Of a stretch of DNA of 64,000 nt, positions 40,603-56,914 are shown one piece after another. The notes beneath the pieces were generated by a model that saw only the letters and a program-made list of their open reading frames with translations, did not search any database and was not told the origin of the DNA. A program made the translations under genes and the position numbers. Numbering within the stretch: position 1 is the stretch's first letter; every line of letters starts with the position of its first letter. The DNA lies in NCBI RefSeq assembly GCF_019355055.1, contig NZ_CP048411.1, positions 2,817,501 through 2,881,500 on the forward strand, read 5' to 3'. This DNA comes from Pseudomonas sp. MTM4 (GTDB taxonomy: Bacteria; Pseudomonadota; Gammaproteobacteria; Pseudomonadales; Pseudomonadaceae).

Positions 40603-40929
40603 GGCAGTCTCCTTCGAGCCGGCAGATGCTGCCGGGAAATGGACCAAGGCCGTTGGCCGAAAGGGGCGATCCGCAGCGGGCACCGCCTGACCTCTGTCAG
40701 AGCGAAAGGCAACCTCATGGTTCCTGCCGAGACGCACGCCGTTTGATATCTCGAACGAATCCTAGTGGTGTGTAGCTGTGCGCAGCAACACCATGTTCAA
40801 AAAAACTAACGCCTGATAGATCAGCCTGATGACCCAGCACGCCATGGCAGCCTCGTCCCAACCATGGCGCCAGCCGCCGAGCCGCCATGGACGGCTGCGG
40901 GCGACATGCGTATGATTGCGCCCCGCAAC

Positions 40930-40971
40930 GCACCAGTAGCTCAGCTGGATAGAGTACTGCCCTCCGAAGGC
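40930..40971 (+). pseudogene. tRNA-Arg 5'-half relic
   Basis: 42 nt matching the 5' half of the intact tRNA-Arg(CCG) 103 bp downstream, from the acceptor strand through the anticodon loop and into the 3' side of the anticodon stem, with one mismatch inside that stretch; homology then stops (next bases AATACTCACC). In the anticodon stem the relic has CTGCC/GGCAA against CCGCC/GGCGG: the C28-G42 pair has become T-A, a compensatory change, so it may come from a different tRNA allele. No T-arm or 3' acceptor strand, so not functional. Confidence 0.75.
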
Positions 40972-41032: not shown

Positions 41033-41109
41033 GCACCAGTAGCTCAGCTGGATAGAGTACCGCCCTCCGAAGGCGGGGGTCGTGGGTTCGAATCCCGCCT
41101 GGTGCGCCA
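41033..41109 (+). tRNA. tRNA-Arg (anticodon CCG)
   Basis: 77 nt with encoded CCA. Acceptor stem GCACCAG pairs with CTGGTGC, discriminator G. D-arm GCTCAGCTGGATAGAGT, anticodon stem CCGCC/GGCGG with loop CTCCGAA (anticodon CCG at 41067-41069), T-arm CGTGGGTTCGAATCCCGC. Marks the left edge of the accessory region; tRNA 3' ends are common integration sites, and an integrase gene lies 3.5 kb downstream. I did not find a second copy of its 3' end in the window. Confidence 0.95.
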
Positions 41110-42680: not shown

Positions 42681-42824
42681 GAAATCCGGGGCGATTCAAT
42701 CTTCATCGCCATTCTCCCAAGGGGTAATTAAACATGAATCCGCATAACACGCAAGATTACAGCTGTACGTATATGCGCCCGGCACGAGTTATAACTGAAT
42801 GTAGTGTTTGAGGAATTGAAAAAA

Positions 42825-43019: not shown

Positions 43020-43701
43020 GCGCCATATAGGCCTCAATGACCTTCATTCCCACATAAAACACGCTAGCCGGGTGAGTGACTCGCAGCGCTGATCCGTCGC
43101 GAAATTTGTACACTTGGTAAAATTCTTGCTCCCCACGTCCCCATAAAAACTGTGAATCTAAGTACCCCCATTCAAATTCTGCTGACCGAACTTTTTCGCT
43201 CACTAAGATCTCGATCTCCTCTCGTGGGAGACCATCTGTTGCAGCCAGAATCCTGTATGCATCAAGGGGCTGCAGCTCACGCGCCCGGTTAGCCCTAAGC
43301 GCCTCCTGAGCACTCTTGACGTCTTGCCCCATAAAGCAGCCCAGCCACTCGCACGGCCCTTCGAGATAGGAGATCATCCATAAATCTCCATCCGCATCAC
43401 GCCAAAGCTGCGAACGGCTAGAGCATCTGTCCTGCCCAGGCTCTACTGATGTCAGACTGAACGGCAGGACCAAGCCGGTTCCATATGGCGATTCCCATCC
43501 TCTACACAAGGTAACGCCTAGCCTGCCAGACCGCCCGGGGAAGAATTCAGTGTGCCCATTTTCCAGTATCATACCGCGCTCCTTATATCGGTAACCGTTA
43601 CTCCCTCCAGCATAAGCGACTGAAATTTCTGAGCAGCCGAAGTCGTTGCACTTACTCCAACCTAGGCTGAGCAGAGCCGCTGGCCTAAGCATGCCCTTCA
43701 T
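43006..43701 (-). CDS. Hypothetical protein, island cargo
   Basis: 231 aa, no family recognised. No signal peptide or obvious membrane span. Rich in Gly, Trp and Tyr, with several cysteines (SKCNDFGCSE, TLCRGW, GPCEWLGCFMG) and a C-terminal EQEFYQVYKFRDGSALRVTH that looks beta-rich. Its ATG overlaps the stop of the upstream CARF-like fragment (ATGA), implying co-translation. Its 3' end overlaps the IS256 remnant, so the natural C terminus may have been changed. Composition is lower in GC than the core. Could be an effector or immunity-type protein; undetermined. Confidence 0.55.
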   Translation of the reverse strand: MKGMLRPAALLSLGWSKCNDFGCSEISVAYAGGSNGYRYKERGMILENGHTEFFPGRSGRLGVTLCRGWESPYGTGLVLPFSLTSVEPGQDRCSSRSQLWRDADGDLWMISYLEGPCEWLGCFMGQDVKSAQEALRANRARELQPLDAYRILAATDGLPREEIEILVSEKVRSAEFEWGYLDSQFLWGRGEQEFYQVYKFRDGSALRVTHPASVFYVGMKVIEAYMAPNHK

Positions 43702-44066
43702 AGCGAACCGCCAGGGCTGAGCAGAATGGAGAGCTGATTGGCGGAAGTATTCAGCCGCTTTAAATGCTGACTGGCGGCCTGGTAGATCTCGCCGAAATGA
43801 ACGGGGGAAGACAGGAAAAAGTAATGCGCGGTGATGGGTACATCGACCTGCTGGCGCAGCCAGGCCAGGTAGGGCTCCACTAGCTCGGAGGGGTATGAGC
43901 AGAGCAGTTCGACGCTATCGAAGGACACCGTGTTCAGCGTCGCCAGAATCGGGCCTGCCTCAGCACCTGCAACTGCCTTGAGATCATTCCCGCCAACCCA
44001 GCTGGCCAATACGCACTGCTTCTTTACCACTGTCCCTGTACTCCCGACCTCCCTATTGCCCATCAA
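43698..44066 (-). pseudogene. N-terminal CARF/RtcR-like sensor domain fragment
   Basis: 122 aa. VVKKQCVLASWVGGNDLKAV, GPILATLNTVSFDSVELLCS, LRQQVDVPITAHYFFLSSPV and HFGEIYQAASQHLKRL resemble the ligand-sensing N-terminal domain of RtcR-like sigma-54 activators, which continue LSPGTPAMxAVW. Here the match stops at LLSPG followed by GSL and a stop, so the AAA+ and DNA-binding domains are missing. Best read as a truncated regulator, now coupled to the 231-aa unknown gene. Recognition is from memory of the family, not a search. Confidence 0.45.
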
Positions 44067-44246
44067 CGGGCAGGAGAAAAAATGTGCTCTGGTTCGCGCC
44101 TTGGATAGTAACCAATACGCTGATCCGGGTCTTTAACTGCCTGACTGGATGTTCAAGTTGCGCTTTGCCGACAGTGGAACCGTTGATCCAAACGCAGCTC
44201 GGCGGGTGAATGGATCACGCTCGCCGCTGCCAGGGGGAGAACAATG

Positions 44247-44266
44247 AAGGGGCCTTTCGGCCCCTT
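44247..44266 (-). terminator. Hairpin terminator downstream of integrase operon
   Basis: AAGGGGCC-TTTC-GGCCCCTT perfect 8-bp stem just past the leftward 94-aa gene; read leftward it is followed by CATTGTT. Short T content, but well placed. 44067-44246 otherwise holds nothing I can call. Confidence 0.6.
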
Positions 44267-44272
44267 CTGCAC

Positions 44273-44557
44273 TTAGTTAGCCAATAAGCTTTCAAGCTTC
44301 TCGATCAGAAAGTCCAGCGGGCTACGGCCCTCCAGGCGCTTTTCGAACACTTCGTTGCGGTGGTAGGCGACCCAGGTCTCGAGGGCATGCCGGTTATCCT
44401 TCTCGTAGCCGGAGCCGAGGACGCAGATAAGCTCGGTGCCATGGGGGTTCTCAAGGTAGTGACTCATAGCTGAAGCCAGATGCTTGAGGTACTTATGCTC
44501 GCGGGCCTCCATAGATGGATGCAGAGGGGTCACGTTGTCGCATTTGATCAGTTTCAT
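44273..44557 (-). CDS. Small hypothetical protein downstream of integrase
   Basis: 94 aa: MKLIKCDNVTPLHPSMEARE, HKYLKHLASAMSHYLENPHG, ending LDFLIEKLESLLAN. Soluble, helical, no known domain. 11 bp after the integrase stop with GAGGAGTTCC before its ATG, so probably co-transcribed with xis-int. Function unknown. Confidence 0.6.
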   Translation of the reverse strand: MKLIKCDNVTPLHPSMEAREHKYLKHLASAMSHYLENPHGTELICVLGSGYEKDNRHALETWVAYHRNEVFEKRLEGRSPLDFLIEKLESLLAN

Positions 44558-44568
44558 GATGGAACTCC

Positions 44569-45729
44569 TCAGGCCTTGAGATTGGCTTTGATCAGGTTGT
44601 CGAAGGCACTGCCATCACGGCGGGTCAGGTTGGGCACATAGCGCGAATAGACACGGAACAGCATCTCGGTGGTGGTATGCCCCATCTGCCGGGCGATCCA
44701 CTCCGGGTTTTCACCAGCCGCCAACCACAGGGTCGCGGCTGTATGACGAGTTTGGTAGGGGCGCCGCCGCCGCAACCCCAGGTGCCGCAGCAGCGGGTAC
44801 CAAACCCGGTCGTTGATGTTGCGGTATGCGTGCGGCGTACCTTCGCGGGTGCAGAAGACGAACTGCCCACTGCCGGTTTTCTCGCGATGGCCGATGAGCG
44901 CCTGATAAACCGGCTCGGACATATCGATCTCACGCTGCGAACCGTCGTTCTTGGTGTAGTCGAGCTTGCCGCCCACCCAGGTCTCACGGATCAAAATCTG
45001 CCGCCGCTGAAAGTCGACGTACTTCCACTGCAAACCATCAATTTCGGCCGTCCGCATGCCGGTGAAGAAACGCACCGTGTAGTAGTTGCGGAAATCGTCA
45101 CGCACTGTGCCGAGGATCTGCAGCACCTCATCCAGAGTGAAGGGCTCCACGTCTGTCTTGGGGACTTTCAGTGATTTGATGTTGAGGTATGGCGAGGTAA
45201 ACTCGAAGCGGTCAGCTGCCTCACTAAGGATCATGCGCAATGGCGTCATGATGTGGTTGATTCGCGTCGCTGTCAGACTCTGACCTTTCTGCCCGGGGAC
45301 TTTGCCGAGTGCCGAGCGGAATGACAGAAGTTCTGCTTTGGTGATGGCGCTGACCTCTTTCTTAGCGAACTCAGGCAGCAAATGCTTATCAAGGGTAAGG
45401 CGCACGGTTTTGGCGTGCGTATCACGCCATTCGACCCTCATCTCCTCAAACCACAGTTCTGCAAAATCCTTGAACAGTGGTGTTTTCAGCGATGCACAGC
45501 CAGCCTGCAGCCGACTGATCTCTAGCACTTTGCTGCTTTGGGGGAAGTAGGTGGCGTAGTCGAAGCTCCCAAGGGTAATTTCCGCTTCGATGCGCTCCAG
45601 GATCTTCTCGAGCTTTTTCCGGTTAGCGGGCGTATCAGGCAGCGTGGTCTGCTCGCGGCAGCGCTGATCCAGGTAGGTGAAGTCAAAGAACAACTTCTCG
45701 TTGTCGGCGCGGGCACGAATCTTACCCAT
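44569..45729 (-). CDS. Tyrosine recombinase, phage/ICE integrase
   Basis: 386 aa from ATG 45729 (MGKIRARADNEKLFFDFTYL). N-terminal Arm-DNA-binding domain about 1-65 (DUF3596-like), SAM-like core-binding domain about 90-185, and catalytic domain with Arg in FTGMRTAEI, HxxR in YQTRHTAATLWL, His in MGHTTTEM and nucleophile Tyr in YSRYVPN. Complete. Overlaps the excisionase-like gene by 8 bp. Probably the integrase of an element attached at the upstream tRNA-Arg, although two ISs and cargo now lie between. Confidence 0.92.
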   Translation of the reverse strand: MGKIRARADNEKLFFDFTYLDQRCREQTTLPDTPANRKKLEKILERIEAEITLGSFDYATYFPQSSKVLEISRLQAGCASLKTPLFKDFAELWFEEMRVEWRDTHAKTVRLTLDKHLLPEFAKKEVSAITKAELLSFRSALGKVPGQKGQSLTATRINHIMTPLRMILSEAADRFEFTSPYLNIKSLKVPKTDVEPFTLDEVLQILGTVRDDFRNYYTVRFFTGMRTAEIDGLQWKYVDFQRRQILIRETWVGGKLDYTKNDGSQREIDMSEPVYQALIGHREKTGSGQFVFCTREGTPHAYRNINDRVWYPLLRHLGLRRRRPYQTRHTAATLWLAAGENPEWIARQMGHTTTEMLFRVYSRYVPNLTRRDGSAFDNLIKANLKA

Positions 45730-45955
45730 GGCAGATGCCCCCGCCGGCCATAGGAACCAGCCCGGAAGTCCGCGAGAATTTCTGCATGTCTTCTTCGACG
45801 GCTTCCCAGATGAAAAGGATCTTGCGGCCGCCAAAGGGGCGGAAGTAGTGGATCCCCTCGAGCAGGACTGAATCTTTCAAGCGATTACGGATGGTGCGCG
45901 CGTCGTACTTCATGCGCGTGGCCAACTCTTCGGTAGTCAGGTATGTGTGAGACAT
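45722..45955 (-). CDS. Excisionase-like MerR/AlpA-type HTH protein
   Basis: 77 aa: MSHTYLTTEELATRMKYDAR, TIRNRLKDSVLLEGIHYFRP, then GGRKILFIWEAVEEDMQKF. A winged-helix excisionase (DUF3987/HTH_17-like) with the typical basic recognition helix and a HYFRPFGGRKILF wing. Immediately upstream of and overlapping int, the usual xis-int order. Directs excision rather than integration, by inference. Confidence 0.75.
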   Translation of the reverse strand: MSHTYLTTEELATRMKYDARTIRNRLKDSVLLEGIHYFRPFGGRKILFIWEAVEEDMQKFSRTSGLVPMAGGGICHG

Positions 45956-45996
45956 GGCTATGCCCTCTCTGCTAAATTGAACGTCAGCGGATTCTT

Positions 45997-46087
45997 ATGA
46001 GCTTCTGAAAACTCATAATGATCTCCTGCAGATCAATATAACGCTCATTTTGAGCTTTGCAAGGGCAAAATGATCTTCTGAAGATCA
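45997..46087. promoter_or_regulatory. Repeated operators between xis and XRE regulator genes
   Basis: Two near-identical palindromes, TGATCTCCTGCAGATCA (46019-46035) and TGATCTTCTGAAGATCA (46071-46087), centred 52 bp apart; the second extends to a 10-bp arm dyad. Two further dyads intervene or flank: ATGAG...CTCAT (45997-46016) and GCTCATTTTGAGC (46043-46055). The array covers both divergent promoters, so the XRE protein is the likely binder. Confidence 0.7.
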
Positions 46088-46103
46088 TTTTTCGGAGATT
46101 AGA

Positions 46104-46316
46104 ATGGTCAAGTGCCATTTATCTCGCTTACTGGGCGAGCGGAAGCTGAAAATCAGTGACGTAGTCAGGGACACAGGGATGAATCGCGGAACCCTCACGC
46201 GGCTCTATCACGAGACCGCGCAGCGGGTGGAGCTCAAGGACCTAGAAACGATCTGCCAGTACCTGAACTGCCAGGTGGGCGATTTGCTGGAACTGCAGGA
46301 TGATCCGGAGGGCTGA
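46104..46316 (+). CDS. XRE/Cro-type HTH regulator
   Basis: 70 aa single-domain Cro/CI-like DNA-binding protein: HLSRLLGERKLKISDVVRDT, GMNRGTLTRLYHETAQRVEL, LETICQYLNCQVGDLLEL (a classical HTH_26 protein). Divergent from xis-int across the operator array; convergent with the 1037-aa gene. Likely the switch regulator of the integrase module. Confidence 0.85.
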   Translation: MVKCHLSRLLGERKLKISDVVRDTGMNRGTLTRLYHETAQRVELKDLETICQYLNCQVGDLLELQDDPEG

Positions 46317-46328
46317 ATGCCCACCCTT

Positions 46329-49300
46329 TCATGCTCGGAAATGCCAGTCGATCGAAGTCATCAGAAAGAGGTAGCGCAATGCTGCGCCGGAATGATGGTT
46401 CCTTTCCTGATCAGTGAAACCCGCACCTGTAAGGCGTAGCCTAGCGCGGATCCCGAGGTGCATATTCTCAACAAGCCTGTTCTCGGGCACCTGCTCTATA
46501 AACTTCAAACGGGGCTTCCGTAACACTTTTCGCCAAAGGCTTTTGGTTCGCTTGGGTGTGCGCTCATCGTAAATGATGAACTCAATATCGGCAGAAGGAA
46601 TGCGCAGCTCAGACAGCACCCATAGGTACTCTCGAACGCTCTGCTCATCCTGCCCAGAGTGGAATCGCAGCGTGGTATCGCTCGCCCAGCAGCGCTCGAC
46701 GAAGTCATCCAGAACCCTGTTAGTTTTTGCCTTATATCTGCCGTCAAGCAATCGGTAGAGCCGGTCAGCGTAGGCAGCTACGCCAGCTAAACCTCCGTGT
46801 CTGGGCGGCCTGGGCACCAGCTCAACTTTACCGTTCGGGTCGCAAGTCGCCGAACCGCTAAGGCGGTGCTTACCAAGCTGACGGATATACCTTGCCCGCT
46901 CCAGCATGGCCGATCGATCCGCATCGGAAAACTCCACCCAGTCCATGTTGACCGACTGTCCTGATGCTTCCGCGTACGCTTGGTATGCGAGCATGGACGA
47001 GATGTCATTCATCCTTGTCAGAGCCCTCCCTTCGCCATTCGATTCTATGGGGCTCATCGGGTAGCTGACTTTGCGACGTTTACTGCGTTTGTATACCCCG
47101 ATACGACCGATGATGCGCCGCATATGGCGGATCTCAGCTGGCAACCCTGGCGCAGCCAAATCTTCTGGCTTACTTGGCAGGCTGACCCCGGCAATTTTTG
47201 CGATGACATGGCCAGGGGGCCAAAACTTGGGCTCCCATTGCCAGCACAACGCCGATAGCCAAGACATGCAGTGCACATAGTGCAGCAGCGACGTCTTGGG
47301 GCTCGCATGGCCGAGCACAGCGCTGGTGATATGGATTACACGGCGGGTGGCGGCTTTCCGGGAATGGAAAAACGCATTATTTAACCTTTCTGCATCCAGC
47401 AACCACGCCATCGTCTGAGATTGCTCACCGAAGAGAAGTCGAGCGTTCTCGCATGCCCCTAACGCTGTGGCGGCCAGCTTGAAGGTGAGCCAGGTTGCAG
47501 CCGAGTGCCGCAGGTGGTGGTAGTGCATATCGGAGCATCTTGTAACCCGGCGGAGGGAGGCATGAATTGCAGGTAACAAGGTGGATTCGGAAACCCATCG
47601 TGTCTGCAGCTCGGGGATACAGAACAGAAATTCCGAATATGGACTTTTCTCCTCTTCGTCATCACGCAACCGCGCCAGGCGCTCTATCAGCTGCAGCTCA
47701 TCTGGCTCGAGCAACACATGGAGTGGCAGCGTACGCGTTGAGTTGCGCGTTTTGAGCGCACGCTGAGAATGGGGGCGAATATGCAGAGCCGCGGGAAGGT
47801 TGAGCGCGGTTCGCTGCTCAGCCGATAGCGGCTTCAGGTTCGGATGCCGTCTACGCAGTGCAGCTGCACGTGCGGCAGAGAGCGTCGGTAACTGCAGATC
47901 GCGGCGCAGCAACTTCAGCGACTCATTACGCCGCAATCCCAGTCGGTATCCGAAAATCACCACAGCCTGCGCGACCATAGCAATACGCGGTGAGCGATGG
48001 CTTAGCGGGCCTGTGGCCAGGTCTCGCAGCACCTGACGATATTGCTCTTCATTGATGATCTGGGCATCAACGAACTGAGGCGTTTTCCCAATACCCAATG
48101 CGGCATAGGGGCTGATTGGTGGATAGGAGAAGCTGTTTTGCAGGTATCCATGAAACTCCAGCAGGCCCTTGGCTAGGTTTCTCCTCATTGGCGCCGTGGG
48201 TTGTACCTCCAGCAGCGTTTCATACAACTCCTCTAACGCGTCCGGCGGAACATCTAGAATCGACCCAACAGACAGCAAATTGTCCAATCCTATACCGACG
48301 TCTCTAACATAGTTGGCAACCGTTTTGGACTGCAAAGGGTTGCCATAGAACGAGCGGCCATGAAGCAGAAACGATGCCCAACCGGTGATCAATTCTTCTA
48401 GCGTCGTAGGTACCTGCTCAACCTCCAGTACCGAAACCCGTCCTCTACGGACCTGCCGACATAACGTCGTCAGCCATCCCGGAACTCGTTGTTCGGGCCT
48501 ACCCAGCCGATGCTTTTTACGTTTGCTTTTTTGTTCATGATTTGAAGACGATCTGTCACCTTGCAGATGCAGCCATGAGTCCGCCAAGACAGAATGCGTC
48601 ACGTAACCGTATCTGGTGGTGTAATTGATCAACAGCTGCGGTAGCTGCGTTTGGCGCTTGATACGCAGCAGCTCAAACAGTCGACTGAGAGACGCGGGTT
48701 GGCTCTGATTATCTACCCCACCTACGGCCAATGCCGCCTGAATACAGTGAAGTTTTCCGTCCCTCTTGGACAGATAAGGTCTCAATTCACTTAGATCTGG
48801 AGCGCAACGGGACAACAGTGCCAGTGTCATCGGATCTGGGAACCATTGCCTACTCTCAGCCTCGGATTGCCCACGGATTGAAAGCTTGAGCCGGAACTCT
48901 GGTATCCCAGATACCCAAATAATCTGACCTACATCAAGCTGGGTCAGCGCATTTAGCTGGGGGATGTCCATCAGCGCGCCATAGTAGGCGGCGCTCAGCA
49001 GGAGTAGCCCAACCCGGCAGTGGGGGGTGAGTTGCTCCAGGTCGTGTCTCAGCGCCCGTTCCAGCGAATCGATCACGTCTCGACTGGCTGAGATGTTCTC
49101 TGCTGTATACAAGTCGGGATTGATTGGATTTGCGGGACGCCGCGTGTCGATCGCTATGTGGGCAAGCGGCAGGCTCGGGTTGAATCGCCGCGCCCGGCTT
49201 GTTACGTCTCGCAGTGCATTGCGTAATGTCGAGCTTTCAAGCTGATTCTCAAGCTCCCGCATCTTTTCGACAGGAAAATTTCTCAGCGAACGTTTACCGC

Positions 49301-49442
49301 AGAGCCATTCTCCGATGACATTGTTGGAGTCTCTGCAGCGCTCCTTGAGCGTCTGAAGAAATTCGCTCTTCCATTCTGGATCGTATTTTTCAGGACTCCA
49401 AATTGCTGACAGCATTTCCTCAGAAAGGGTCGAAATGGTCAT
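46329..49442 (-). CDS. Giant tyrosine recombinase-like protein (1037 aa)
   Basis: 1037 aa, far longer than ordinary integrases (300-450). The catalytic core lies around residues 490-730: Arg in FGYRLGLRRNESLKLL, HLRHSAATWLTFKL (HxxR box), LGHASPKTS and candidate nucleophile Tyr in LLHYVHCMSWL, so all core elements are present. A 490-residue N-terminal region with SAM-like segments (SKTVANYVRDVGIGLDNLL) precedes it, and about 300 unassigned residues follow. A basic patch (KSKRKKHRLGRPEQR) near residue 305 may bind DNA. Starts 4 bp inside the 833-aa gene (ATGA), so the two are coupled. Resembles multi-recombinase mobile modules (RIT, Tn554, gamma-mobile-trio) in concept; I cannot assign it to any. 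Confidence 0.75.
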   Translation of the reverse strand: MTISTLSEEMLSAIWSPEKYDPEWKSEFLQTLKERCRDSNNVIGEWLCGKRSLRNFPVEKMRELENQLESSTLRNALRDVTSRARRFNPSLPLAHIAIDTRRPANPINPDLYTAENISASRDVIDSLERALRHDLEQLTPHCRVGLLLLSAAYYGALMDIPQLNALTQLDVGQIIWVSGIPEFRLKLSIRGQSEAESRQWFPDPMTLALLSRCAPDLSELRPYLSKRDGKLHCIQAALAVGGVDNQSQPASLSRLFELLRIKRQTQLPQLLINYTTRYGYVTHSVLADSWLHLQGDRSSSNHEQKSKRKKHRLGRPEQRVPGWLTTLCRQVRRGRVSVLEVEQVPTTLEELITGWASFLLHGRSFYGNPLQSKTVANYVRDVGIGLDNLLSVGSILDVPPDALEELYETLLEVQPTAPMRRNLAKGLLEFHGYLQNSFSYPPISPYAALGIGKTPQFVDAQIINEEQYRQVLRDLATGPLSHRSPRIAMVAQAVVIFGYRLGLRRNESLKLLRRDLQLPTLSAARAAALRRRHPNLKPLSAEQRTALNLPAALHIRPHSQRALKTRNSTRTLPLHVLLEPDELQLIERLARLRDDEEEKSPYSEFLFCIPELQTRWVSESTLLPAIHASLRRVTRCSDMHYHHLRHSAATWLTFKLAATALGACENARLLFGEQSQTMAWLLDAERLNNAFFHSRKAATRRVIHITSAVLGHASPKTSLLHYVHCMSWLSALCWQWEPKFWPPGHVIAKIAGVSLPSKPEDLAAPGLPAEIRHMRRIIGRIGVYKRSKRRKVSYPMSPIESNGEGRALTRMNDISSMLAYQAYAEASGQSVNMDWVEFSDADRSAMLERARYIRQLGKHRLSGSATCDPNGKVELVPRPPRHGGLAGVAAYADRLYRLLDGRYKAKTNRVLDDFVERCWASDTTLRFHSGQDEQSVREYLWVLSELRIPSADIEFIIYDERTPKRTKSLWRKVLRKPRLKFIEQVPENRLVENMHLGIRARLRLTGAGFTDQERNHHSGAALRYLFLMTSIDWHFRA

Positions 49443-51940
49443 TTAGCCTCCTTAACTAGGTGGCTGTTGCGAACCATCCAACCGAGCTCTCTCATCAGCG
49501 GCAATAAATACGCATGGAGGCTCTGGACATAAGCGCCAGGACAAAAGCTTGAGAACGACTCTTGGGGCGCCTCGCCATGCAGCCAGTGCCCCATGAATGC
49601 GGCAAGCGTTTCAGGCGGGCACCCACGCTCTGCGAGCTCGGTCCTCAGCAACTTGCGGAAACCGTTCACTGGATGGGGTGTAAAACCAACCACCTGCCGC
49701 ATATATGCGTCGATATGTGACGGACGGATTTCCTCGTAGTACAGCCGATTGTCATCAGCAAACCACAGGAAAAAACCGGACCTAGGAGGAGTCTGTGCAG
49801 GTAGGCCGTATTTGAACTTCACACGAATTGCACAGCAGTGCGCGTCGTATGCCTCTAGCTGCCGACGCAGTAGCTCAGGCATCACTACCAGACGGCTCAT
49901 GTGACCGTCATCTGCGCCTTTATCGCCCAGTGCGCCGTGGCCACTTCGTTGCTCGAACTCTTCCACTGCTTTTAGCGGGTTGCGGATGGCTCGACACGCG
50001 GTCGCCATTAGGAACATGAGGATGGTCCAGAGCGTCAGGCAGTTGTGCCAATGAATCAGCTCTTGAATATCTTTTCGTGGGCGTTTGCGCAGCACTGCGA
50101 GCAATGCTTCAAGATTGTTTTTCACAGCGCTAAGTTTCAGACAATTTCGGGCACCAACCGCCATCTCTGAAGAGCTAATGACGTTAGTAACTGGCGCCTC
50201 CAAACCTACTGTGCCGTAAATAGCGGTTAATACATTTCGCACTGAATGACAATAGAGGCTGCGTAGGTGATCAACGCTGTATTGGGTGTAATAAAGCGCA
50301 GTATTAGCCGACAGGCAAGGCAGCCCGGACAACATCGTGGCCGCAACCACATCGTGTGTATCGGTGATTATTTGGCGATGTAAATAGGAACGAATCTTGT
50401 GAACTGTATATCGCGGGTCACCTCCCCCCAATTCTTTCAAGAGGACACGAACTTCGCTCTCAATTTTCTTAACTTTCCCGGCAAATACGGCCGTTCCGGT
50501 CGTAGATGGCAGCGCTCTGACTCCCAATACTAACGTCGCGGCTCCCACCATATCCGGTACTGAAACTGCCGCCCCCCTCTTTCGAACCGTTTCAGGGGGC
50601 AGTTGCTCCTCCGCAGCGTAATCTGGTGTAGGTATTAAAAACCTGAACTCAGCAGACTCCAAGTCTTTAGCAGGTATAAGCTCAAACGCCACCCGCGGGC
50701 GCGCGCCGCCCTCAGAGATCTGTAGTTTTGTGCAATCCTCAAGTGACCTGCCGAACCAGAGCATGAGATGTAGGGCGAGTAGCGCCTCCATGCGCGTACG
50801 GATGCCTACCTGCTCTGGCAGTGGCGCTGTGCGGAACCGCTCCCGGCACTGCAGAAATTCATCAGTGACGCTGAACAGGAGATTTGCTAATTCGGGCAAC
50901 GTCAGCAGGTTGAATCCGAACGGTAAGAACTGCCGAGCGCGGGCAATATGGGCGAGGATTCCCTGATGGCTGAGCAACTCGGCGACATAGGGCCTGACTT
51001 CGCCGCCGGTATCGATCAAACAGAGTTCATCTGGCGCAGTGATTTCGCCGTCGGGCAATTCTTCGTCGAAATCATGGTCTAACCGTGGAACAACAAAACT
51101 AATATGGCCTGGCAGTAGATCGGGATCGTCCGGATCATCAAGAGGGAACTTGGTTACCCCTTGACTTACTACCACACCTAATCCGGAGCGGACTGGCATC
51201 CTGCCTCGATGATTGCCACCACCACCACGACGCTCAGGTGGCTGATCGCCCCCGCAATAACGAACTAGCCGGGTAACAGCAGGAAAGGCATCAGCATGGA
51301 CGTCGACTGAAATACTGGGATCGAAAACTGTGCAGCTCCGCATAAATATGGCTGGACTAGACCAAATATTTAGCTCTGCAGGGACGGTCAGTAGTTCCTT
51401 CGCGCAAAGCGTACGCAGCTTGAGATATGCATTGTATTTCTGGCCGCGAAGGTCCGATGCACCAGAGCTCTCCTGATGCGCCACCAGTAGCTGTCCTACA
51501 AGCCGGTAGTAATCTGGCGCGCCATCAACATCGGCCGGCTCATGCCATAACATTGCATACGGGAAAGCGTAATCCTGGACGCCCTGTCCAATGATTGGAT
51601 TACGCCTGCGCGCCTCATCTCCGGAAAAAAAACGAGGGCCCAGGGCTGAGATGAACCGCGGATTGCTCCTATTAGAAATTATCCAGTGACACTCATGCCG
51701 CCAGACCACGGGATCAAAATCACCGACGAACAGAACCGGCGGCTTTTCCATTTCATTCAGCGCGTTTAACAACCCTTGGATTATTCGGGGAAAATCTATG
51801 AGCTGAGGATGAGCATCTATAAATTTCAGAATCTCTGTTATGACAGTTACGTCACGCCCGGACCCTGCTGCCAGCTGTAGCAGCTCTTTGAATGTGGTTT
51901 CGCAGCCGGCATCCCTTGGCTGGCTTAGTGAGTTCGACAT
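49439..51940 (-). CDS. Large divergent tyrosine recombinase-like protein (833 aa)
   Basis: 833 aa. C-terminal 200 residues look like a divergent tyrosine recombinase: Arg in LMATACRAIRNPLKA (about residue 648), a box NGFRKLLRTELAERG where the expected His of HxxR is Asn (about 760), AAFMGHWLHGE (about 783) and Tyr in PGAYVQSLHAYLL (about 803). The N-terminal 600 residues are unassigned; a Gly/Arg-rich segment (PERRGGGGNHRGR) sits near residue 238. It may be a catalytically altered partner of the 1037-aa protein, with which it is translationally coupled. First gene of the leftward pair, divergent from the four-HTH protein. Function inferred from motifs only. Confidence 0.65.
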   Translation of the reverse strand: MSNSLSQPRDAGCETTFKELLQLAAGSGRDVTVITEILKFIDAHPQLIDFPRIIQGLLNALNEMEKPPVLFVGDFDPVVWRHECHWIISNRSNPRFISALGPRFFSGDEARRRNPIIGQGVQDYAFPYAMLWHEPADVDGAPDYYRLVGQLLVAHQESSGASDLRGQKYNAYLKLRTLCAKELLTVPAELNIWSSPAIFMRSCTVFDPSISVDVHADAFPAVTRLVRYCGGDQPPERRGGGGNHRGRMPVRSGLGVVVSQGVTKFPLDDPDDPDLLPGHISFVVPRLDHDFDEELPDGEITAPDELCLIDTGGEVRPYVAELLSHQGILAHIARARQFLPFGFNLLTLPELANLLFSVTDEFLQCRERFRTAPLPEQVGIRTRMEALLALHLMLWFGRSLEDCTKLQISEGGARPRVAFELIPAKDLESAEFRFLIPTPDYAAEEQLPPETVRKRGAAVSVPDMVGAATLVLGVRALPSTTGTAVFAGKVKKIESEVRVLLKELGGGDPRYTVHKIRSYLHRQIITDTHDVVAATMLSGLPCLSANTALYYTQYSVDHLRSLYCHSVRNVLTAIYGTVGLEAPVTNVISSSEMAVGARNCLKLSAVKNNLEALLAVLRKRPRKDIQELIHWHNCLTLWTILMFLMATACRAIRNPLKAVEEFEQRSGHGALGDKGADDGHMSRLVVMPELLRRQLEAYDAHCCAIRVKFKYGLPAQTPPRSGFFLWFADDNRLYYEEIRPSHIDAYMRQVVGFTPHPVNGFRKLLRTELAERGCPPETLAAFMGHWLHGEAPQESFSSFCPGAYVQSLHAYLLPLMRELGWMVRNSHLVKEAK

Positions 51941-52304
51941 CAGCTAGTCCTATCGTGTGAGTACTAGCTAATAGTGCTAAGCCGAAGTCCCCCAATTCGG
52001 GCATGCCATGGAAATCCAGAAGCTGGTTCTGATTTTTCAGAATCGGCTGACACCACACCTGGTTTTCCGCGCATGCGCGGAAAACCAGGTCGATACGCCG
52101 AGTATTCTCACACGGATTCCGCGCATGCGCGGGTTGGAAGCGCTGCAGCTTCCAAAGTCGAGGCCATCCCCCTCCAGGCACTAGACATAGGGCCGCCCGC
52201 TCACTATTCGATAATATTTTCGGTGCCTAGGCATATCGAACTGGAATCGGTGCACTTGCTCTGAGCACTACCTCATAGAGCGGTGAATTTCTCGCCTGCT
52301 CAAA
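51941..52304. promoter_or_regulatory. Palindrome-rich divergent region, candidate recombination/operator site
   Basis: Contains a perfect 34-bp palindrome at 52057-52090 (17-bp arms, no loop, core CCGCGCATGCGCGG), a second copy of that 14-bp core at 52119-52132 centred 52 bp away, an 8-bp-arm hairpin at 52134-52155 (TTGGAAGC/GCTTCCAA), and TTCTGA-TTTT-TCAGAA at 52029-52044. It separates the recombinase pair from the HTH-repeat gene and could be the binding or crossover site of either. Confidence 0.7.
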
Positions 52305-52319
52305 ATGGAGGAAATGCAC

Positions 52320-52877
52320 ATGCGTAAAAGCGACTGGAAAGCCCAGGTCGGCCAGTTCAGCGACCGCGAAATAGCGAGGAGGTTTGGGGTGGGAGCGACT
52401 ACCGTCCGCCGGTATCGAAAGGCCAACGGTATCGCCGAATTCAGCTTCAAGCTAGAACTTACACAATCGCTGATTGAGCGGCTGGCAGTACAGACGGACT
52501 ACAGCCTATCCAAAGACCTCGGTATTCCCGCAAAAAGCATTAAGGAGGCTCGAACTGAGTTTGGTATTCCGGAGCCAAAACCCCTCCGGCCTAAGTTCCA
52601 ACCACTTGAGGAAATTTGGAACGAGCAAACGATTGCGCTTCTTGGCACTATGCCCGACTACGAGTTAGCCGATAGGCTAAAAGTTAGTAACTACCCGATC
52701 AAATCCAAACGAAAAGAGCTGGGAATAAAAGCGTTTGAAAAACCATATCCAAAAATCACTGCTAAAATTGCAGCCGAGTTTGGTTTGACCTCTGACCGAA
52801 TTTTAGCCGAGCGCCTAGGCGTTTCCCCAAGCTATATCCGTAGGGCGAGACTCAGATGGTTGGCAAAAGACGAATGA
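52320..52877 (+). CDS. Four-fold helix-turn-helix repeat protein
   Basis: 185 aa. GGAGGA at 52307-52312 is 7 bp before ATG 52320; ATGs at 52305 and 52314 are too close to it. Four similar HTH units occupy about residues 14-40, 59-84, 111-138 and 157-180: each reads roughly DxxIAxRLGVxxxxIRxxRxxxGI (for example REIARRFGVGATTVRRYR and RILAERLGVSPSYIRRAR). Basic C terminus. A protein with four DNA-reading heads suits the repeated palindromes upstream. Divergent from the giant recombinases; likely regulator or accessory factor. Followed by an IS3 element at 70 bp, so downstream neighbours may have been displaced. Confidence 0.7.
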   Translation: MRKSDWKAQVGQFSDREIARRFGVGATTVRRYRKANGIAEFSFKLELTQSLIERLAVQTDYSLSKDLGIPAKSIKEARTEFGIPEPKPLRPKFQPLEEIWNEQTIALLGTMPDYELADRLKVSNYPIKSKRKELGIKAFEKPYPKITAKIAAEFGLTSDRILAERLGVSPSYIRRARLRWLAKDE

Positions 52878-52986
52878 CCTGTATAATTTCCATTAACTAG
52901 CTAACCCCAAAGCGCCGTATATTATGCTTTGCATAGCGGCGCGACTATGAATCGCCCCGGGTTTTGTGGAGGCCGTTTCGTTTAAG

Positions 52987-53832
52987 TCAGGCCGCCATGG
53001 CCTGACCTGCTTGTTGCTGGTGGAAGTTTGCCTCAGCCTCCGCAGGCGGGATATATCCGATTGAGCTCAGCAGGCGTTGGTGGTTGTACCAGTGCACCCA
53101 TTTCAAAGTCGCCATTTCGACGGCTTCGCGGCTCTTCCATGACTGACGGTAAATCAGCTCGGCCTTGTACAACCCGTTGATGGTTTCGGCCAAGGCGTTG
53201 TCGTAGCTGTCTCCCTTGCTGCCAACCGAAGGCTCAATGCCGGCCTCTGCCAGCCGTTCGGTATAGCGGATCGAGACGTACTGGCTTCCACGGTCGCTGT
53301 GATGGATCAGACCACCCGAGCAATGCGGCTGACGGGCATACAAGGCTTGCTCTAGGGCATCCAGTACGAAGTCTGTCTTCATGCTGGTACTGACTCGCCA
53401 GCCGACGATCCGCCGTGCAAAGACGTCGATCACGAACGCCACGTACAGCCAGCCCTGCCAGGTCGATACATAGGTGAAGTCCGACACCCACAACTGGTTC
53501 GGGCGGTCGGCATGGAACTGGCGTTGGACACGATCCAGCGGGCAAAGGGCCTTGTCGCCGGCCACCGTTGTCTGCACGATCTGGCCACGTCTAATGCCCT
53601 GCAATCCGGCCCGACGCATTAACCGCTCCACCGTGCATCTGGCGACCTCGATGCCTTCTCGCCGCAGCTGCTTCCAGACCTTCACCGCGCCATAGCACTG
53701 CATATTGGCATCCCACACTCGCTGGATTTCCAGGGTCAATGCGTCATCGCGCTGAGCACGACAACAGCGCAGTGCCGGGTTGCGCTGTTGAGCCACGTGC
53801 CTGCGGTAACCGGACGGGGCGATCTGCAACAC
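52987..53832 (-). CDS. IS3-family transposase OrfB (DDE), copy 2
   Basis: 281 aa visible from an internal start (LQIAPSGYRRHVAQQRNPAL); the same frame is open further upstream (AFVDQHRDRLGVESICRV) and overlaps the end of orfA, so the real product is an OrfAB fusion by -1 frameshift. DDE motifs: Asp in LWVSDFTYVSTW, Asp in LIHHSDRGSQYVS, Glu in NALAETINGLYKAE; ends with WYNHQRLLSSIGYIPPAEAE. Intact. Confidence 0.93.
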   Translation of the reverse strand: MLQIAPSGYRRHVAQQRNPALRCCRAQRDDALTLEIQRVWDANMQCYGAVKVWKQLRREGIEVARCTVERLMRRAGLQGIRRGQIVQTTVAGDKALCPLDRVQRQFHADRPNQLWVSDFTYVSTWQGWLYVAFVIDVFARRIVGWRVSTSMKTDFVLDALEQALYARQPHCSGGLIHHSDRGSQYVSIRYTERLAEAGIEPSVGSKGDSYDNALAETINGLYKAELIYRQSWKSREAVEMATLKWVHWYNHQRLLSSIGYIPPAEAEANFHQQQAGQAMAA

Positions 53833-53885
53833 GCGGCAGATCGACTCGACCCCGAGACGGTCACGATGCTGATCGACAAACGCCC

Positions 53886-54209
53886 TCAGGACTTGGTGCG
53901 GCGGTCGAGCTCCGCCTGGGCAAAATACGCACTGGCCAGGCGCAATATCTCGTTTGCCTTACGCAGTTCGCGGTTTTCGCGCTCTAGGGCTCTGATGCGC
54001 TCGCGCTCTTCACTGGTCTGACCGGGGCGCTGCCCCGCATCGGTCTGCTGGCGACGAATCCAGCCATGCAGGGTTTGCGCGGCACAGCCAATCTTCGGAG
54101 CGATGGCCTCAATGGCTGCCCACTCGGACGGATAGTCGTTCAGGTGTTCCAGAACCATGCGCACAGCACGCTCACGGACTTCAGGGGAGTAGGTAGTAGT
54201 CTTTCTCAT
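53886..54209 (-). CDS. IS3-family transposase OrfA, copy 2
   Basis: 107 aa: [23 protein letters not shown] in [20 protein letters not shown], and C-terminal coiled coil [20 protein letters not shown]. Intact, with orfB in the -1 frame just past it; I could not identify the slippery heptamer. Confidence 0.92.
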
Positions 54210-54358
54210 GGCCTCATCTTCTCAAGAGTTGAGGCCTCCACGAAACCCGGGGTGATTCACTATCAGGTTATCCAGCCCTCTTCAGGAGCACCTAGTTTAA
54301 AAATTAGCGCCCTGGCTTATGCAGGTACAGTGCATCCATTAATGTCGAGGCAGTTTTA

Positions 54359-54580
54359 ATGAAGATCAAGCCGATTCGTACTGATGGCGACCTAGCTACC
54401 GCTTTGGCGCTTATGGAGCAACTGTGGGGTGCCCCGATCGGTACGCCAGAGAGTGATGCGCTAGAAGCGCTCGCAGCGTTGATCGAGAAATATGAAGACG
54501 AACACTATCCGATCCCACCTTCTGATCCCGTCGAGGCCATCAGATTCCGAATGGAACAGCATGGGCTCGGAGTGATCTAG
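54359..54580 (+). pseudogene. Truncated HigA-type antitoxin
   Basis: 73 aa: MKIKPIRTDGDLATALALME, then GTPESDALEALAALIEKYED and HYPIPPSDPVEAIRFRMEQH. This is the N-terminal dimerisation half of HigA-like antitoxins; the frame stops (GLGVI) just where the Cro/CI HTH domain should begin. No HigB toxin frame remains upstream, where IS3 copy 2 ends 100 bp away. Probably non-functional, though truncated antitoxins can still bind a toxin. Confidence 0.75.
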
Positions 54581-55184
54581 CGCTCCCTGGGTATTCGCTC
54601 CAACCGACGCCATCCAGCCGCGCGAATCCCGCAATCGACAAGATGCTAGAAGCCTAGGGTTCGTAAGCCTCGCGATGGAGTAACAGGCTGATCACGACGT
54701 CCGTGATGACATCCATTTGATGTTCTCACTTCAAAGCAACCTACGGCTGCTTTCGGCCAAAAGCTGCCTGTCGTTGAGTGCAATTTTTGACTCATGGCTG
54801 CCAGCAACGGCAGCAGTTAAAATGCTCAGAGACGATCACTCAACGAGCAATAGACCTAGTTTGTTCGACCGAGCTAGATTAGTAAAAGCTCTTTCACTTT
54901 TTGCTTGATTTCAGCAGGGCTTTCTTCAAATCCGTATTTACCGGCATTATCTTTAGAAGAGTTATATCCCAAGAAATAACCATTGTATTGAAAGTAGTTA
55001 GTGTCAATTTTTCGCCTGCTTGGCTTGCCTTTTTCCAGCATATCCAGAAGCGTTTTTAAGTGTGAGCGTGTTAGCCAGAATTTTAGAAGTAATCCGCTCC
55101 CTAGCATTCAGTGCCGATCATTGGAGCTGCTTGAAAGCCCAAGGCCTAGCTCAGGGCTAGTCGTCTACACCAGTTCCGCTATGT
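54581..55184. other. Degenerate, AT-richer segment with one doubtful small ORF
   Basis: 604 bp with no confident gene. On the minus strand 54874-55107 encodes 77 aa (ends KQKVKELLLI, contains NYFQYNGYFLGYNSSKDNAG), AT-rich and of plausible composition but unrecognised; it could be a fragment of a small cargo protein. The rest looks like junction debris between the HigA fragment and the Tn3 remnant. Confidence 0.4.
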
Positions 55185-55361
55185 ATGCTGAAGGGGGCCC
55201 AACCACTCTACCTGACCAGCAACCTCAAGCGCTTCGGCGAATTCAACCTCAAGCTAAACCGGCCACCGGAGCCCTGGATCAAGGACTCGGTGTTCCAACA
55301 AGCTGCCGGCTCGCTGCGGGTGATCAGACCTAGCCAGCTAGATACCGAGAAAACGCCATGA
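55185..55361 (+). pseudogene. tnpA: Tn3-family transposase TnpA, C-terminal remnant
   Basis: 58 codons open only from about 55161. LYLTSNLKRFGEFNLKLNRP followed by PEPWIKDSVFQQ resembles the extreme C terminus of Tn3-family transposases (LSPYxxxHIxRFGxYxLDL..PEP). The remaining ~940 residues are gone. Its stop overlaps the tnpC start (ATGA), so the original tnpA-tnpC coupling is kept. Confidence 0.55.
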
Positions 55362-55720
55362 TCAACATTCCTCCCGCATCCTTCCGCCTTACACCGTACG
55401 GCGAAGTGGACGCCGTGGCGTTGGAAAACCTGCGCGACAGCTTCGACACCTCTCAACTGCTCCGGCTGGTTGATCGCTTGGACGTCTGCTTGGTGGAACT
55501 GGGTGGAATCACCTCCATTCGCGACGAGCTACTGAGATTGCATGCGATGGCTCTGACGATAGTTGAGGGCATCGCTCTTACGGTGCCTGCCGAGAGTGCT
55601 TGTATCTGGACAGAAGCCCAATCTCTACAGATGGATCTTGAGGCACTGGTTTCTTGGGCGCGCTCCGCTCAGCTCATCATTGCGCCGCTGATCAATCTTG
55701 CTCCACAGCACGAGGCATGA
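55358..55720 (+). CDS. tnpC: TnpC, post-transcriptional regulator of Tn3-family transposase
   Basis: 120 aa: ASFRLTPYGEVDAVALENLR, FDTSQLLRLVDRLDVCLVEL, GGITSIRDELLRLHAMALTI. Matches the small TnpC protein of the Tn4651/Tn4652 subgroup, which lowers transposase level after transcription. Intact but orphaned, since tnpA is deleted except for its tail. Helical, soluble. Marks the border of a former Tn3-type transposon; I could not find its terminal inverted repeat. Confidence 0.65.
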   Translation: MINIPPASFRLTPYGEVDAVALENLRDSFDTSQLLRLVDRLDVCLVELGGITSIRDELLRLHAMALTIVEGIALTVPAESACIWTEAQSLQMDLEALVSWARSAQLIIAPLINLAPQHEA

Positions 55721-55745
55721 GCGCTCTCGCCGATTTCGACGAGGC

Positions 55746-56705
55746 TCAACTGTTTCTGACCATGGCTGGAATCGCCCGTAAGTAGATCAATTCACCAATC
55801 AGTTCTACGAGTGTCTGAGTAATCACAGCCGCCGCGGCCAGCGCGCGAATGGACTCCGGGAGCGCTAGGGCCAGGGGAAGCACTACAAGCGAGTTGCGAG
55901 TGCCTGAGCTAAAGGCCACTGCCCGTGCGGCAGAAGCCTCCAAGCCAAATAGCCGGGAGCTGAGTACGCCGAGGGCCGGAGCGAGTAGTAGAAACGCTCC
56001 GTATACCGGAAGCAACGGCGCCAGGATGTCGAGTTGGTACACGACAGCCGCGATCTGCGAACCCACCACCACGATTAGAACCAGGGCCATTGCAGGCACT
56101 GGCAGCCAGGCCCAACCTGCGCTCCATGCGCGAAGCAGCAGAGATCGGCGTCCGCCAAATTCGGTGAGCACAGCCGCTACCAAGGGTAGGACGATCAGTA
56201 ACAGGAAGGCTTCTGCGAAGGGCCACAGCTCGATCACTGTGCCGGCTTCGGGGCCAAGGATTAGCCGCAAGTAGAGGGGCAGCAGCAGAAGCTGGAGCAA
56301 CAGCAGCAATGGCGTCGCCGCGAGCACCAGACGAGAGTCCCCTTTGCCCAGGTGGGTGAAGACCACCACGTAATCGATACAAGGCGTCAGCAGGACAAGC
56401 AGCGCGCCGACCAACAAGGCCTTGTTCGATGAGAGCGGCCACGTCACCAGCCACACCATCAATGGCACCAATAGGAAGTTGGCCAGCAACAAGGCACCGA
56501 CGAAGCGGCGGTTGGCAAAAGCTTCTCGCAGCTCCAAAAAAGGAATCTGCAGAAACATGGCATACATCAGCACGGCAATCGCCGGTGTGATGGCCATGGC
56601 CGTCAGTCCGGTGAATTGCGCAGAGCTCAGGCCTGCAATGGCAGCGGCCACCACCGCCGCGAAATAAAATGCTATCTGGTGTTCTTCCAGCCAGTCCCGC
56701 GACAT
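55746..56705 (-). CDS. Arsenic resistance protein, ACR3/bile acid:sodium symporter superfamily
   Basis: 319 aa from ATG 56705 (MSRDWLEEHQIAFYFAAVVA) with GGGAAG upstream. About ten membrane helices. Signature elements: LLTPCIDYVVVFTHLGKGDS (Cys in the fourth helix region, as in ACR3-type arsenite carriers) and AFSSGTRNSLVVLPLALALP. Likely exports arsenite or a related anion across the inner membrane; a different solute is possible because no arsC or arsR adjoins it. Divergent from the dsb gene pair. The frame extends 270 bp upstream without resemblance. Confidence 0.78.
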   Translation of the reverse strand: MSRDWLEEHQIAFYFAAVVAAAIAGLSSAQFTGLTAMAITPAIAVLMYAMFLQIPFLELREAFANRRFVGALLLANFLLVPLMVWLVTWPLSSNKALLVGALLVLLTPCIDYVVVFTHLGKGDSRLVLAATPLLLLLQLLLLPLYLRLILGPEAGTVIELWPFAEAFLLLIVLPLVAAVLTEFGGRRSLLLRAWSAGWAWLPVPAMALVLIVVVGSQIAAVVYQLDILAPLLPVYGAFLLLAPALGVLSSRLFGLEASAARAVAFSSGTRNSLVVLPLALALPESIRALAAAAVITQTLVELIGELIYLRAIPAMVRNS

Positions 56706-56914
56706 CTGATATCTTCCCTTGTTGCGCAAGGGCGACATTCTCCCACTGGCATCGGATTTAACCCAGCGTTGAGGCTGGTTGCTTTTCGCTTTGCCGTTGG
56801 GCGAAGTCCGCAACGGTCCTAACAAGTCCTGCCGATAAGAGGATGCATGATGTTTCGAAATAACTGGATGGCGGGTCTGAGGCAAGTGCTCGCCATCGCC
56901 AGGAGTTAACCGCA

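What the first reader, a model, noticed from the sequence alone, without database searches (positions are those of the whole stretch)
46329..52877. Divergent module: two coupled giant tyrosine-recombinase-like proteins plus a four-HTH protein
An 833-aa and a 1037-aa protein overlap by 4 bp and both carry tyrosine-recombinase core motifs near or after the middle, embedded in about 600 and 490 residues of unassigned N-terminal sequence. The 1037-aa protein has R, HxxRH, GH and Y; the 833-aa one has Asn in place of the HxxR histidine. A divergent 185-aa protein with four HTH units completes a trio-like layout. It resembles RIT, Tn554 and gamma-mobile-trio modules in concept, but the sizes and the HTH-repeat partner do not match what I remember of these. 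It could be an unrecognised mobile-element engine.
Basis: partly seen in the sequence, partly recalled or inferred. Interest (0 to 1): 0.85.

Follow-up and report, generated by a model that had tools for sequence, protein, structure and literature searches.

The report
Paired giant recombinases of tRNA-Arg islands
Two large, translationally coupled DNA-recombining proteins (one apparently active, one a degenerate double-domain partner) sit beside an ordinary integrase in a mobile genomic island of Stutzerimonas, next to a small palindrome where related islands repeatedly switch from one sequence to another, which suggests an uncharacterised machine for reshuffling island modules.

Summary
TRb (1037 aa) and TRa (833 aa) overlap by 4 bp; a divergent 190-aa protein has four HTH units. 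TRb keeps the tyrosine-recombinase catalytic set (R504, K564, HxxR, H712, Y722; 93-94 of 94 sequences). The pair lies in an 86-kb tRNA-Arg(CCG) island with a classical Arm-type integrase (INT); sister islands carry Wadjet, type I R-M or Druantia genes. It is not gamma-mobile-trio (HMMs) and not SE (sequence). Beyond the finding, palindromes CCGCGCATGCGCGG lie upstream of TRa in many islands (2 or more in 11 of 21 TRa-positive genomes, 3 of 377 others). Homology between islands ends at these cores more often than chance (8 of 21 ends; 0 of 5000 random placements), and the HTH side, TR pair and INT side have reassorted independently. I read TRa/TRb as an exchangeable recombinase pair most likely acting at this palindrome; which enzyme acts there is inferred. 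Rivals: the pair helps INT move the island (SE/GInt-like), or the palindrome is an HTH190 operator.

The parts
40929..40971 (+). 5' half of the host tRNA-Arg gene, left outside the island (left edge of attL)
   Evidence: 43-nt repeat of the tRNA 5' half; 3' half at attR, G000:C1:2944599-2944648; uninterrupted site in L068/G025
41033..41109 (+). complete tRNA-Arg(CCG) carried at the island's left end
   Evidence: ARAGORN; comparison of attL and attR
44273..44557 (-). ORF94, frequent partner of INT
   Evidence: tblastn/phmmer in related loci
44569..45834 (-). INT: Arm-type tyrosine integrase (421 aa as listed; likely start Met36, 386 aa)
   Evidence: PF12167, PF22022, PF14659, PF00589; in 20 of 21 TRa-positive genomes of 398
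46104..46316 (+). XRE70, small HTH regulator between INT and TRb, opposite strand
   Evidence: sequence; PHROG transcription regulator
46329..49442 (-). TRb: 1037-aa tyrosine recombinase with complete catalytic set; core about 341-732
49439..51940 (-). TRa: 833-aa protein with two stretches of degenerate tyrosine-recombinase catalytic fold
52057..52090 (.). 34-bp perfect palindrome, core CCGCGCATGCGCGG at 52067-52080 (proximal to TRa)
52119..52132 (.). second palindromic core CCGCGCATGCGCGG (distal, HTH190 side)
52305..52877 (+). HTH190: divergent protein with four HTH units

Best explanation
The genes are a coupled two-recombinase module of a tRNA-Arg genomic island. SHOWN (by sequence comparison): an 86-kb island bounded by tRNA-Arg repeats, with an Arm-type integrase at its tRNA end; TRb keeps every catalytic residue; TRa and TRb are of the same type in each locus where both are held; the TR pair, the HTH190 side and the XRE-INT side have recombined independently; the left junction of these exchanges often lies at the palindrome CCGCGCATGCGCGG upstream of TRa. 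INFERRED: INT excises and integrates the island at tRNA-Arg; TRb cuts and rejoins DNA at the palindrome, with TRa as a non-catalytic or half-catalytic partner that binds and bridges sites; the outcome is exchange of what lies left of the site (HTH190 and cargo) against the TR/INT backbone of another island or circular form. HTH190 and XRE70 would be the regulators.
For: Catalytic set of TRb in 93-94 of 94 sequences; recombinase folds. TRa and TRb types match in 18 of the 18 loci that hold both. INT in 20 of 21 TRa-positive genomes against 18 of 377 TRa-negative (E<=1e-20 for TRa, 1e-60 for INT). Two or more exact cores in 11 of 21 TRa-positive genomes against 3 of 377 others, in those 11 mostly within 2 kb upstream of TRa; the own genome has the 16-mer only there. 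8 of 21 homology ends between islands lie within 6 bp of a core in both sequences; random mean 0.09, 0 of 5000 trials. L008 and L009 share 90.5% over 1573 bp, identical over the last 60 or more bases, up to the core, and are unrelated right after it, while L008 is 84-90% identical to L004/L005 from the core on. L011: XRE-INT region 96% identical to type-I L004 but TR pair 84% identical to type-II L217; L008: HTH190 gene 93% identical to type-II L009 but TR pair of type I.
Against: No recombination was observed and no circular junction could be tested. 10 of 21 TRa-positive genomes lack the exact core (for example G196, G187, G376). Alignments extend across a shared core by themselves, so breakpoints are located only to about 14-20 bp. 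13 of 21 homology ends are not at cores in both sequences. The right boundary of the TR exchange, about 70 bp before the TRb stop, has no such palindrome. Position 796 of TRa (candidate nucleophile) is Phe in the window and not Tyr in 12 of 68.
Confidence: 0.42

Rival explanations
1. INT, TRa and TRb together excise and integrate the whole island at tRNA-Arg, as the core genes of SEs and GInts do; the palindromes are regulatory sites, and the mosaics arose by ordinary recombination.
For: INT and the pair co-occur in 20 of 21 TRa-positive genomes, also when about 11 kb (L010/G070, L005) or 37 kb (L015) apart on the same contig. Catalytic recombinases plus a degenerate one is the pattern reported for SE and GInt, whose four core genes are reported as essential (PMC5385486 parts 1-2; PMC10214605 part 1 and passages).
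Against: INT looks self-sufficient (Arm-type, tRNA target). Of 20 further INT neighbourhoods (51-69% identity, several on short contigs) 15 show no TRa/TRb-like gene in the fetched stretch. In G087 and G155 INT and the pair lie on different contigs. No significant sequence relation to SE or GMT proteins. TR types are swapped without INT.
Confidence: 0.3
2. The palindrome is the operator of HTH190 (or a cruciform), and TR types were swapped by homology-assisted or illegitimate recombination using the long XRE-INT homology on one side and the conserved core as micro-homology on the other.
For: The core lies in the divergent promoter region of HTH190 and TRa; in Halopseudomonas one copy sits beside HTH190. 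Natural competence of P. stutzeri is recalled knowledge, from no call.
Against: HTH190 without core in L006, L014, L015 and G376; core without HTH190 nearby in L005 and L016. Repeated junctions at the same short core, also inside the site arrays of L017/L020.
Confidence: 0.17
3. TRa-TRb (with HTH190 or the upstream small ORF) is a separate mobile cassette nested in the islands and moves by itself.
For: TR pair exchanged as a block; in L017/L020 cores lie on both sides of the ORF-TRa-TRb-HTH190 block; related pairs on Acinetobacter and Sphingobium plasmids.
Against: The repeat listing of 40900-60500 (20 largest direct families and 25 longest inverted pairs) shows no repeat pair bounding TRa-TRb. 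INT is in the same genome in all Pseudomonadaceae cases checked except G226 (79% complete) and L012's genome (pair at a contig end).
Confidence: 0.08

Closest known systems
SE, strand-biased circularizing integrative elements (intA, tfp, intB, srap)
   Same: Several tyrosine recombinases, one of them catalytically degenerate (Tfp), in overlapping genes at one element end, plus a small protein
   Different: SE-6945 proteins are 408, 581, 720 and 135 aa in one run of genes; ours 386-421, 833 and 1037 aa with an opposite-strand gene between INT and TRb; no significant sequence match; reported SE targets are other loci, such as bcp (passages)
GInt (ginABCD)
   Same: Islands with three recombinases, one lacking a catalytic Arg; variable cargo; found in Pseudomonas, P. 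stutzeri included
   Different: ginABCD is one operon; 10-17-nt repeats, in genes such as an ABC transporter or ssb; ours has an Arm-type integrase, about 50-bp tRNA repeats and a TR pair that can lie far from INT. GInt sequences were not at hand to compare
Gamma-mobile-trio (GmtX, GmtY, GmtZ)
   Same: Two tyrosine recombinases plus a small protein in neighbouring or overlapping genes; defence cargo (recalled, not read)
   Different: No NCBIfam hit for our proteins; GmtY model 441 and GmtZ model 784 positions; GmtZ of L182 carries PF13009/PF14882; only weak profile scores
RIT and Tn554 elements
   Same: Sets of tyrosine recombinases acting together
   Different: RIT recombinases of the archetype are 315-410 aa, with 34-bp terminal repeats (passage); sizes here far larger; neither compared by sequence
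tRNA-integrated genomic islands with Arm-type integrases
   Same: INT, tRNA-Arg attL/attR, empty site in a relative
   Different: Extra giant recombinase pair and palindromic junction site; crossover in the anticodon loop and a complete island-borne tRNA gene

Membership tests
Tyrosine recombinase superfamily (TRb) | R...K...HxxR...H...Y and catalytic fold | tested here: met
Tyrosine recombinase superfamily (TRa) | catalytic fold | tested here: met
Tyrosine recombinase superfamily (TRa) | complete catalytic residues in one domain | tested here: not met
   second stretch has Asn759 for the HxxR His and Phe796 in the window; first stretch lacks the first Arg in 14 of 71 and has no GH His (positions assigned by eye)
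Gamma-mobile-trio | match to GmtX NF040692, GmtY NF040693, GmtZ NF047926 | tested here: not met
   no hit at E<=1 for TRa and TRb, and no Gmt model among the hits of HTH190 and INT; positive control passes on L181/L182. Against a 16-protein set the TRa profile scores one GmtZ at 6.2 bits, E 0.0016, TRb one GmtY at 2.9 bits: weak, shared fold at most
SE | homologues of IntA/Tfp/IntB/Srap | tested here: not met
   TRa, TRb and INT profiles against SE-6945 proteins: at most 2.3 bits, best E 0.025 in a 16-protein set (IntA only in part)
SE | intA-tfp-intB-srap gene run at one end | tested here: not met
   XRE70 on the opposite strand between INT and TRb; order differs
GInt | ginABCD operon of three integrases and a small protein | tested here: not met
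   INT separated from the pair by XRE70, and about 11 or 37 kb away in L010/G070, L005 and L015
GInt | sequence homology to GinA-D | not tested
   no GInt sequence at hand
RIT | three tandem recombinases of 315-410 aa | tested here: not met
   833 and 1037 aa; definition from a passage of PMC10214605
RIT | 34-bp terminal inverted repeats | tested here: inconclusive
   a 34-bp palindrome lies inside the island, not at its ends; no comparison with RIT ends made
Tn554 | TnpA-TnpB-TnpC homology | not tested
   no Tn554 sequence compared
tRNA genomic island with Arm-type integrase | Arm domain integrase beside a tRNA gene, attL/attR repeats, empty site | tested here: met
Integrative conjugative element | conjugation genes | not tested
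   island ORFs of 200 aa or more were only listed

The most novel reading that the evidence does not exclude
A new class of tyrosine-recombinase system: a giant catalytic recombinase (TRb) paired with a partner carrying two catalytic-fold stretches (TRa) that recombines palindromic, possibly hairpin-forming core sites (CCGCGCATGCGCGG) and so swaps the cargo side and the recombinase type of defence- and metal-resistance islands, while a separate tRNA integrase moves the whole island. Members would extend to Acinetobacter plasmids and Sphingobium.
Probability: 0.3. Interest if true: 0.82.

Novelty: new variant of a known kind. Interest (0 to 1): 0.62.

Why it matters
How islands acquire and exchange defence or resistance cargo next to a fixed integrase is poorly understood. 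A recombinase pair tied to a short, testable palindromic site would give a concrete mechanism and a simple reporter assay. The two-fold TRa would also be an unusual tyrosine-recombinase architecture (the listings showed no paper that I recognised as describing it) and a test case for how degenerate partners (Tfp, GinC) work.

Tried and rejected
GMT membership: rejected with HMMs and a positive control. SE membership: rejected by sequence. Profile-profile comparison gave no clear link between TRa, TRb and GMT (best: TRa second stretch against GmtZ, P 0.02), but it also failed to link TRb with INT (P 0.17) or the two TRa stretches with each other (P 0.49), so a negative there means little. Known RNA in the HTH190-TRa gap: two chance-level Rfam matches below gathering scores. 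Other palindromes upstream of TRa in core-less loci: no common one; G072 and L169 share TATATA-centred palindromes, not followed. Arm complementarity of the cores (26 distinct sites): above expectation at offset 2 (0.81 against 0.48) and offsets 6-11, below or equal at others, so a hairpin is only a possibility. HTH190 as constant member: rejected. The small ORF and Arm integrase of an Acinetobacter plasmid: no detectable relation to those of L015 and the window. Viral contigs: one close locus and two distant ones. The N- and C-terminal extensions of TRb were hardly tested by the fold comparison.
Full report
OBSERVATION. The window encodes TRb (1037 aa, 46329-49442, minus), TRa (833 aa, 49439-51940, minus; 4-bp overlap) and a divergent 190-aa protein with four HTH units (52305-52877, plus). 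They are real genes: 93, 70 and 38 homologous protein clusters at E<=1e-3 (in only the about 8000 candidates sharing most words were scored).

PROTEINS. TRb: Pfam Phage_integrase is below threshold for the window copy (E 1.4e-5) but matches 37 of 39 aligned relatives at E<=0.01. R504, K564, R645, H712 and Y722 are kept in 93-94 of 94 sequences. The AlphaFold model (mean pLDDT 80.9) matches core-binding plus catalytic domains at about 341-732; the N-terminal 340 and C-terminal 300 residues are unassigned. TRa: none of 30 members has a Pfam hit at E<=0.01. The model (mean pLDDT 74.9) aligns to tyrosine recombinases in two stretches, about 339-573 (29 of the 50 rows shown) and 596-820 (12 rows); 9 rows, the top one included, span parts of both, so the domains may be interleaved (Foldseek alone is weak, best E 4.7e-3; the two stretches show no sequence similarity). 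The first stretch keeps R517 (69 of 71) and Y551 (70 of 70 without gap) but has R398 in only 57 of 71 and no GH histidine. The second keeps R650, K674, N759, R762 (69 of 69) and H785 (67 of 68), while position 796, 11 residues after H785, is Tyr in 56 of 68 and Phe in the window. I therefore call TRa a degenerate recombinase with two catalytic folds. That a Tyr is supplied in trans is a speculation.

THE ISLAND. Next to a tRNA-Arg(CCG) (41033-41109) lies INT, an Arm-type integrase (PF12167), then XRE70, TRb, TRa and HTH190. The tRNA 3' half recurs at G000:C1:2944599-2944648. Comparing attL, attR and sister islands shows that the crossover lies in the anticodon loop, that the host tRNA is split (5' half at 40929-40971) and that the island carries a complete replacement tRNA gene. 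Of 30 loci of this site examined, L068 (G025) has both flanks next to each other (right flank 84% over 846 bp), an empty site; in seven others (L058, L059, L062, L063, L064, L069, L070) only the tRNA 3' half and at most about 110 bp beyond match. The island is therefore about 86 kb. From the listed ORFs it looks like a metal-resistance island (judged by eye). The segment 43472-52948 is 100% identical in G005, another genome of the genus, consistent with recent transfer. Sister islands carry Wadjet JetA, JetC and JetD and type I R-M genes (G095), type I R-M (L005) or a DruE protein (L018) (8 proteins scanned).

CO-OCCURRENCE. In 56 genomes of the genus, TRa occurs in 8 and INT in 9, the 8 among the 9; the ninth INT (G010) lies about 1 kb from a contig end. 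In 398 family genomes TRa (E<=1e-20) occurs in 21 and INT (E<=1e-60) in 38; 20 of the 21 have INT, in G087 and G155 on another contig, and G226 (79% complete) has none. Of ten genomes behind named loci (two of them already counted) 9 have INT at E<=1e-40; in L010/G070 and L005 it lies about 11 kb and in L015 about 37 kb from the pair on the same contig (contig identity by length). Against a strict link: of 20 fetched INT neighbourhoods from more distant INTs (51-69% identity), 5 had TRa/TRb-like genes and 15 did not, several on short contigs. In L015, L018/G187, G196, G182, G186, G376 (both modules), G072, G087, G226, L090 and L220 an ORF of 154-211 aa precedes TRa directly; whether these ORFs are homologous is not shown (those of L015 and L220 do not match), and the window lacks one. 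Related pairs occur on Acinetobacter plasmids (754 or 779 plus 1066 aa, or one 1561-aa protein) and in Sphingobium (306 plus 947 aa).

THE PALINDROME. Between TRa and HTH190 lie two copies of CCGCGCATGCGCGG, one inside a 34-bp perfect palindrome (52057-52090). The 16-mer TTCCGCGCATGCGCGG occurs nowhere else in the 4.69-Mb genome, and the window has 4 matches (2 sites, both strands) with up to 2 mismatches against 0.36 expected. Cores are found upstream of TRa in L004, L005, L008 (variants), L009, L011, L012, L013, L016, L017, L020, G095, G165, G182, G186, G043 and G048 (some of these are the same genome) and not in L006, L007 and L042 (TRa cut), L010, L014, L015, L018, L019, G196, G187, G376, G070, G072, G087, G155, G226 or the plasmids L089-L091. 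In 398 genomes, 11 of 21 TRa-positive ones have two or more exact cores, against 3 of 377 TRa-negative ones (24 of 377 have at least one).

JUNCTIONS. Pairwise BLAST of the upstream regions of 10 representatives gave 21 homology ends inside the gap; 8 lie within 6 bp of a core in both sequences (random placement: mean 0.09, 0 of 5000 trials reach 8), 9 in at least one (mean 2.8, 42 of 5000). The ends share loci and so are not independent, and a shared core lengthens an alignment by itself, so this locates the break only to the core and a few bases. The clearest case: L008 and L009 share 90.5% over 1573 bp, identical over the last 60 or more bases, up to the core and are unrelated after it, and L008 continues from the core like L004 and L005. 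Module comparisons disagree: L011 has an XRE-INT region 96% identical to L004 but a TR pair 84% identical to L217, whose INT region is only 83.9% identical; L008 has the HTH190 gene of L009 (93%) but a type-I TR pair (87.7% to L004, about 52% to type II). The other border of the exchange lies about 70 bp before the TRb stop, without palindrome. Within a locus, TRa and TRb are of the same type in 18 of 18 (the nineteenth locus, L009, ends before TRb).

MECHANISM. INT is enough to explain tRNA-Arg integration. The pair is kept catalytically competent (TRb), is exchanged as a cognate unit and sits beside a short palindrome where islands have been spliced. The simplest reading is a two-component recombinase acting at that palindrome, with HTH190 and XRE70 as regulators. 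That TRa/TRb and not INT, RecA or another enzyme made the junctions is inference. The rivals are given with their probabilities.

COMPARISON. Papers: GInt, PMC5385486, parts 1 and 2 of 6 and passages; SE, PMC10214605, part 1 of 10 and passages, and PMC9345347, passages; PMC8138268 and PMC9298801, passages; the GMT paper was not held, its gene set is known here from NCBIfam. The module resembles the SE/GInt group (catalytic plus degenerate recombinases) but fails the tested membership features of GMT, SE, GInt and RIT listed in the table. Searches for a description of this pair listed none that I recognised; that covers open-licence PMC papers only, seen as listings.

Noticed in passing
window 42785-43014 against G048:C1:4318926-4319155: A 230-bp segment with a 19-bp hairpin is inverted between this genome and G048 (100% identity), while G049 has the window's orientation; no inverted repeats of 8 bp or more found at its ends.
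   Followed up: partly
window 40929-41109; G043:C2:1256117-1256470: The island brings a complete tRNA-Arg(CCG) gene; G043 shows two leftover 5' tRNA fragments in tandem, as if insertions had accreted.
   Followed up: partly
G043:C2:1184477-1184806: A 110-residue INT remnant (88% identity) beside attR suggests an older or tandem element.
   Followed up: no
L123/L124 (G376:C1 10000-49999): Two different TRa/TRb modules lie within about 20 kb: one 24-26% and one 40-44% identical to the window's.
   Followed up: no
L089, L090, L091, L220: Plasmid-borne relatives: 754/779+1066 aa pairs in Acinetobacter, 306+947 aa in Sphingobium, and a single 1561-aa protein in A. indicus.
   Followed up: partly
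window 41468-42698 and 52948-54259: Two insertions with transposase ORFs of IS3 type (by eye) and 38- and 27-bp inverted ends flank the INT-TR-HTH module.
   Followed up: no
L017 8493-16333 and L020 3639-11690: Halopseudomonas loci have four cores upstream of TRa (L017: two exact, two with one mismatch; L020: three exact, one with one mismatch) plus one exact core beside HTH190; the homology pattern suggests a duplicated segment between cores in L020.
   Followed up: partly
window 44569-45834: Single stops reported inside several INT homologues (e.g. G010, G032, G044, G376, G070) are probably upstream of the true start: the ORF in L042 is 386 aa, fitting Met36.
   Followed up: partly
L131 (G072) and L169 (G115), upstream of TRa: Distant modules have their own palindromes (CAGCTATATATAGCTG; AGCAGCTATATATAGCTGCT), perhaps a type-specific counterpart of the core.
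   Followed up: no
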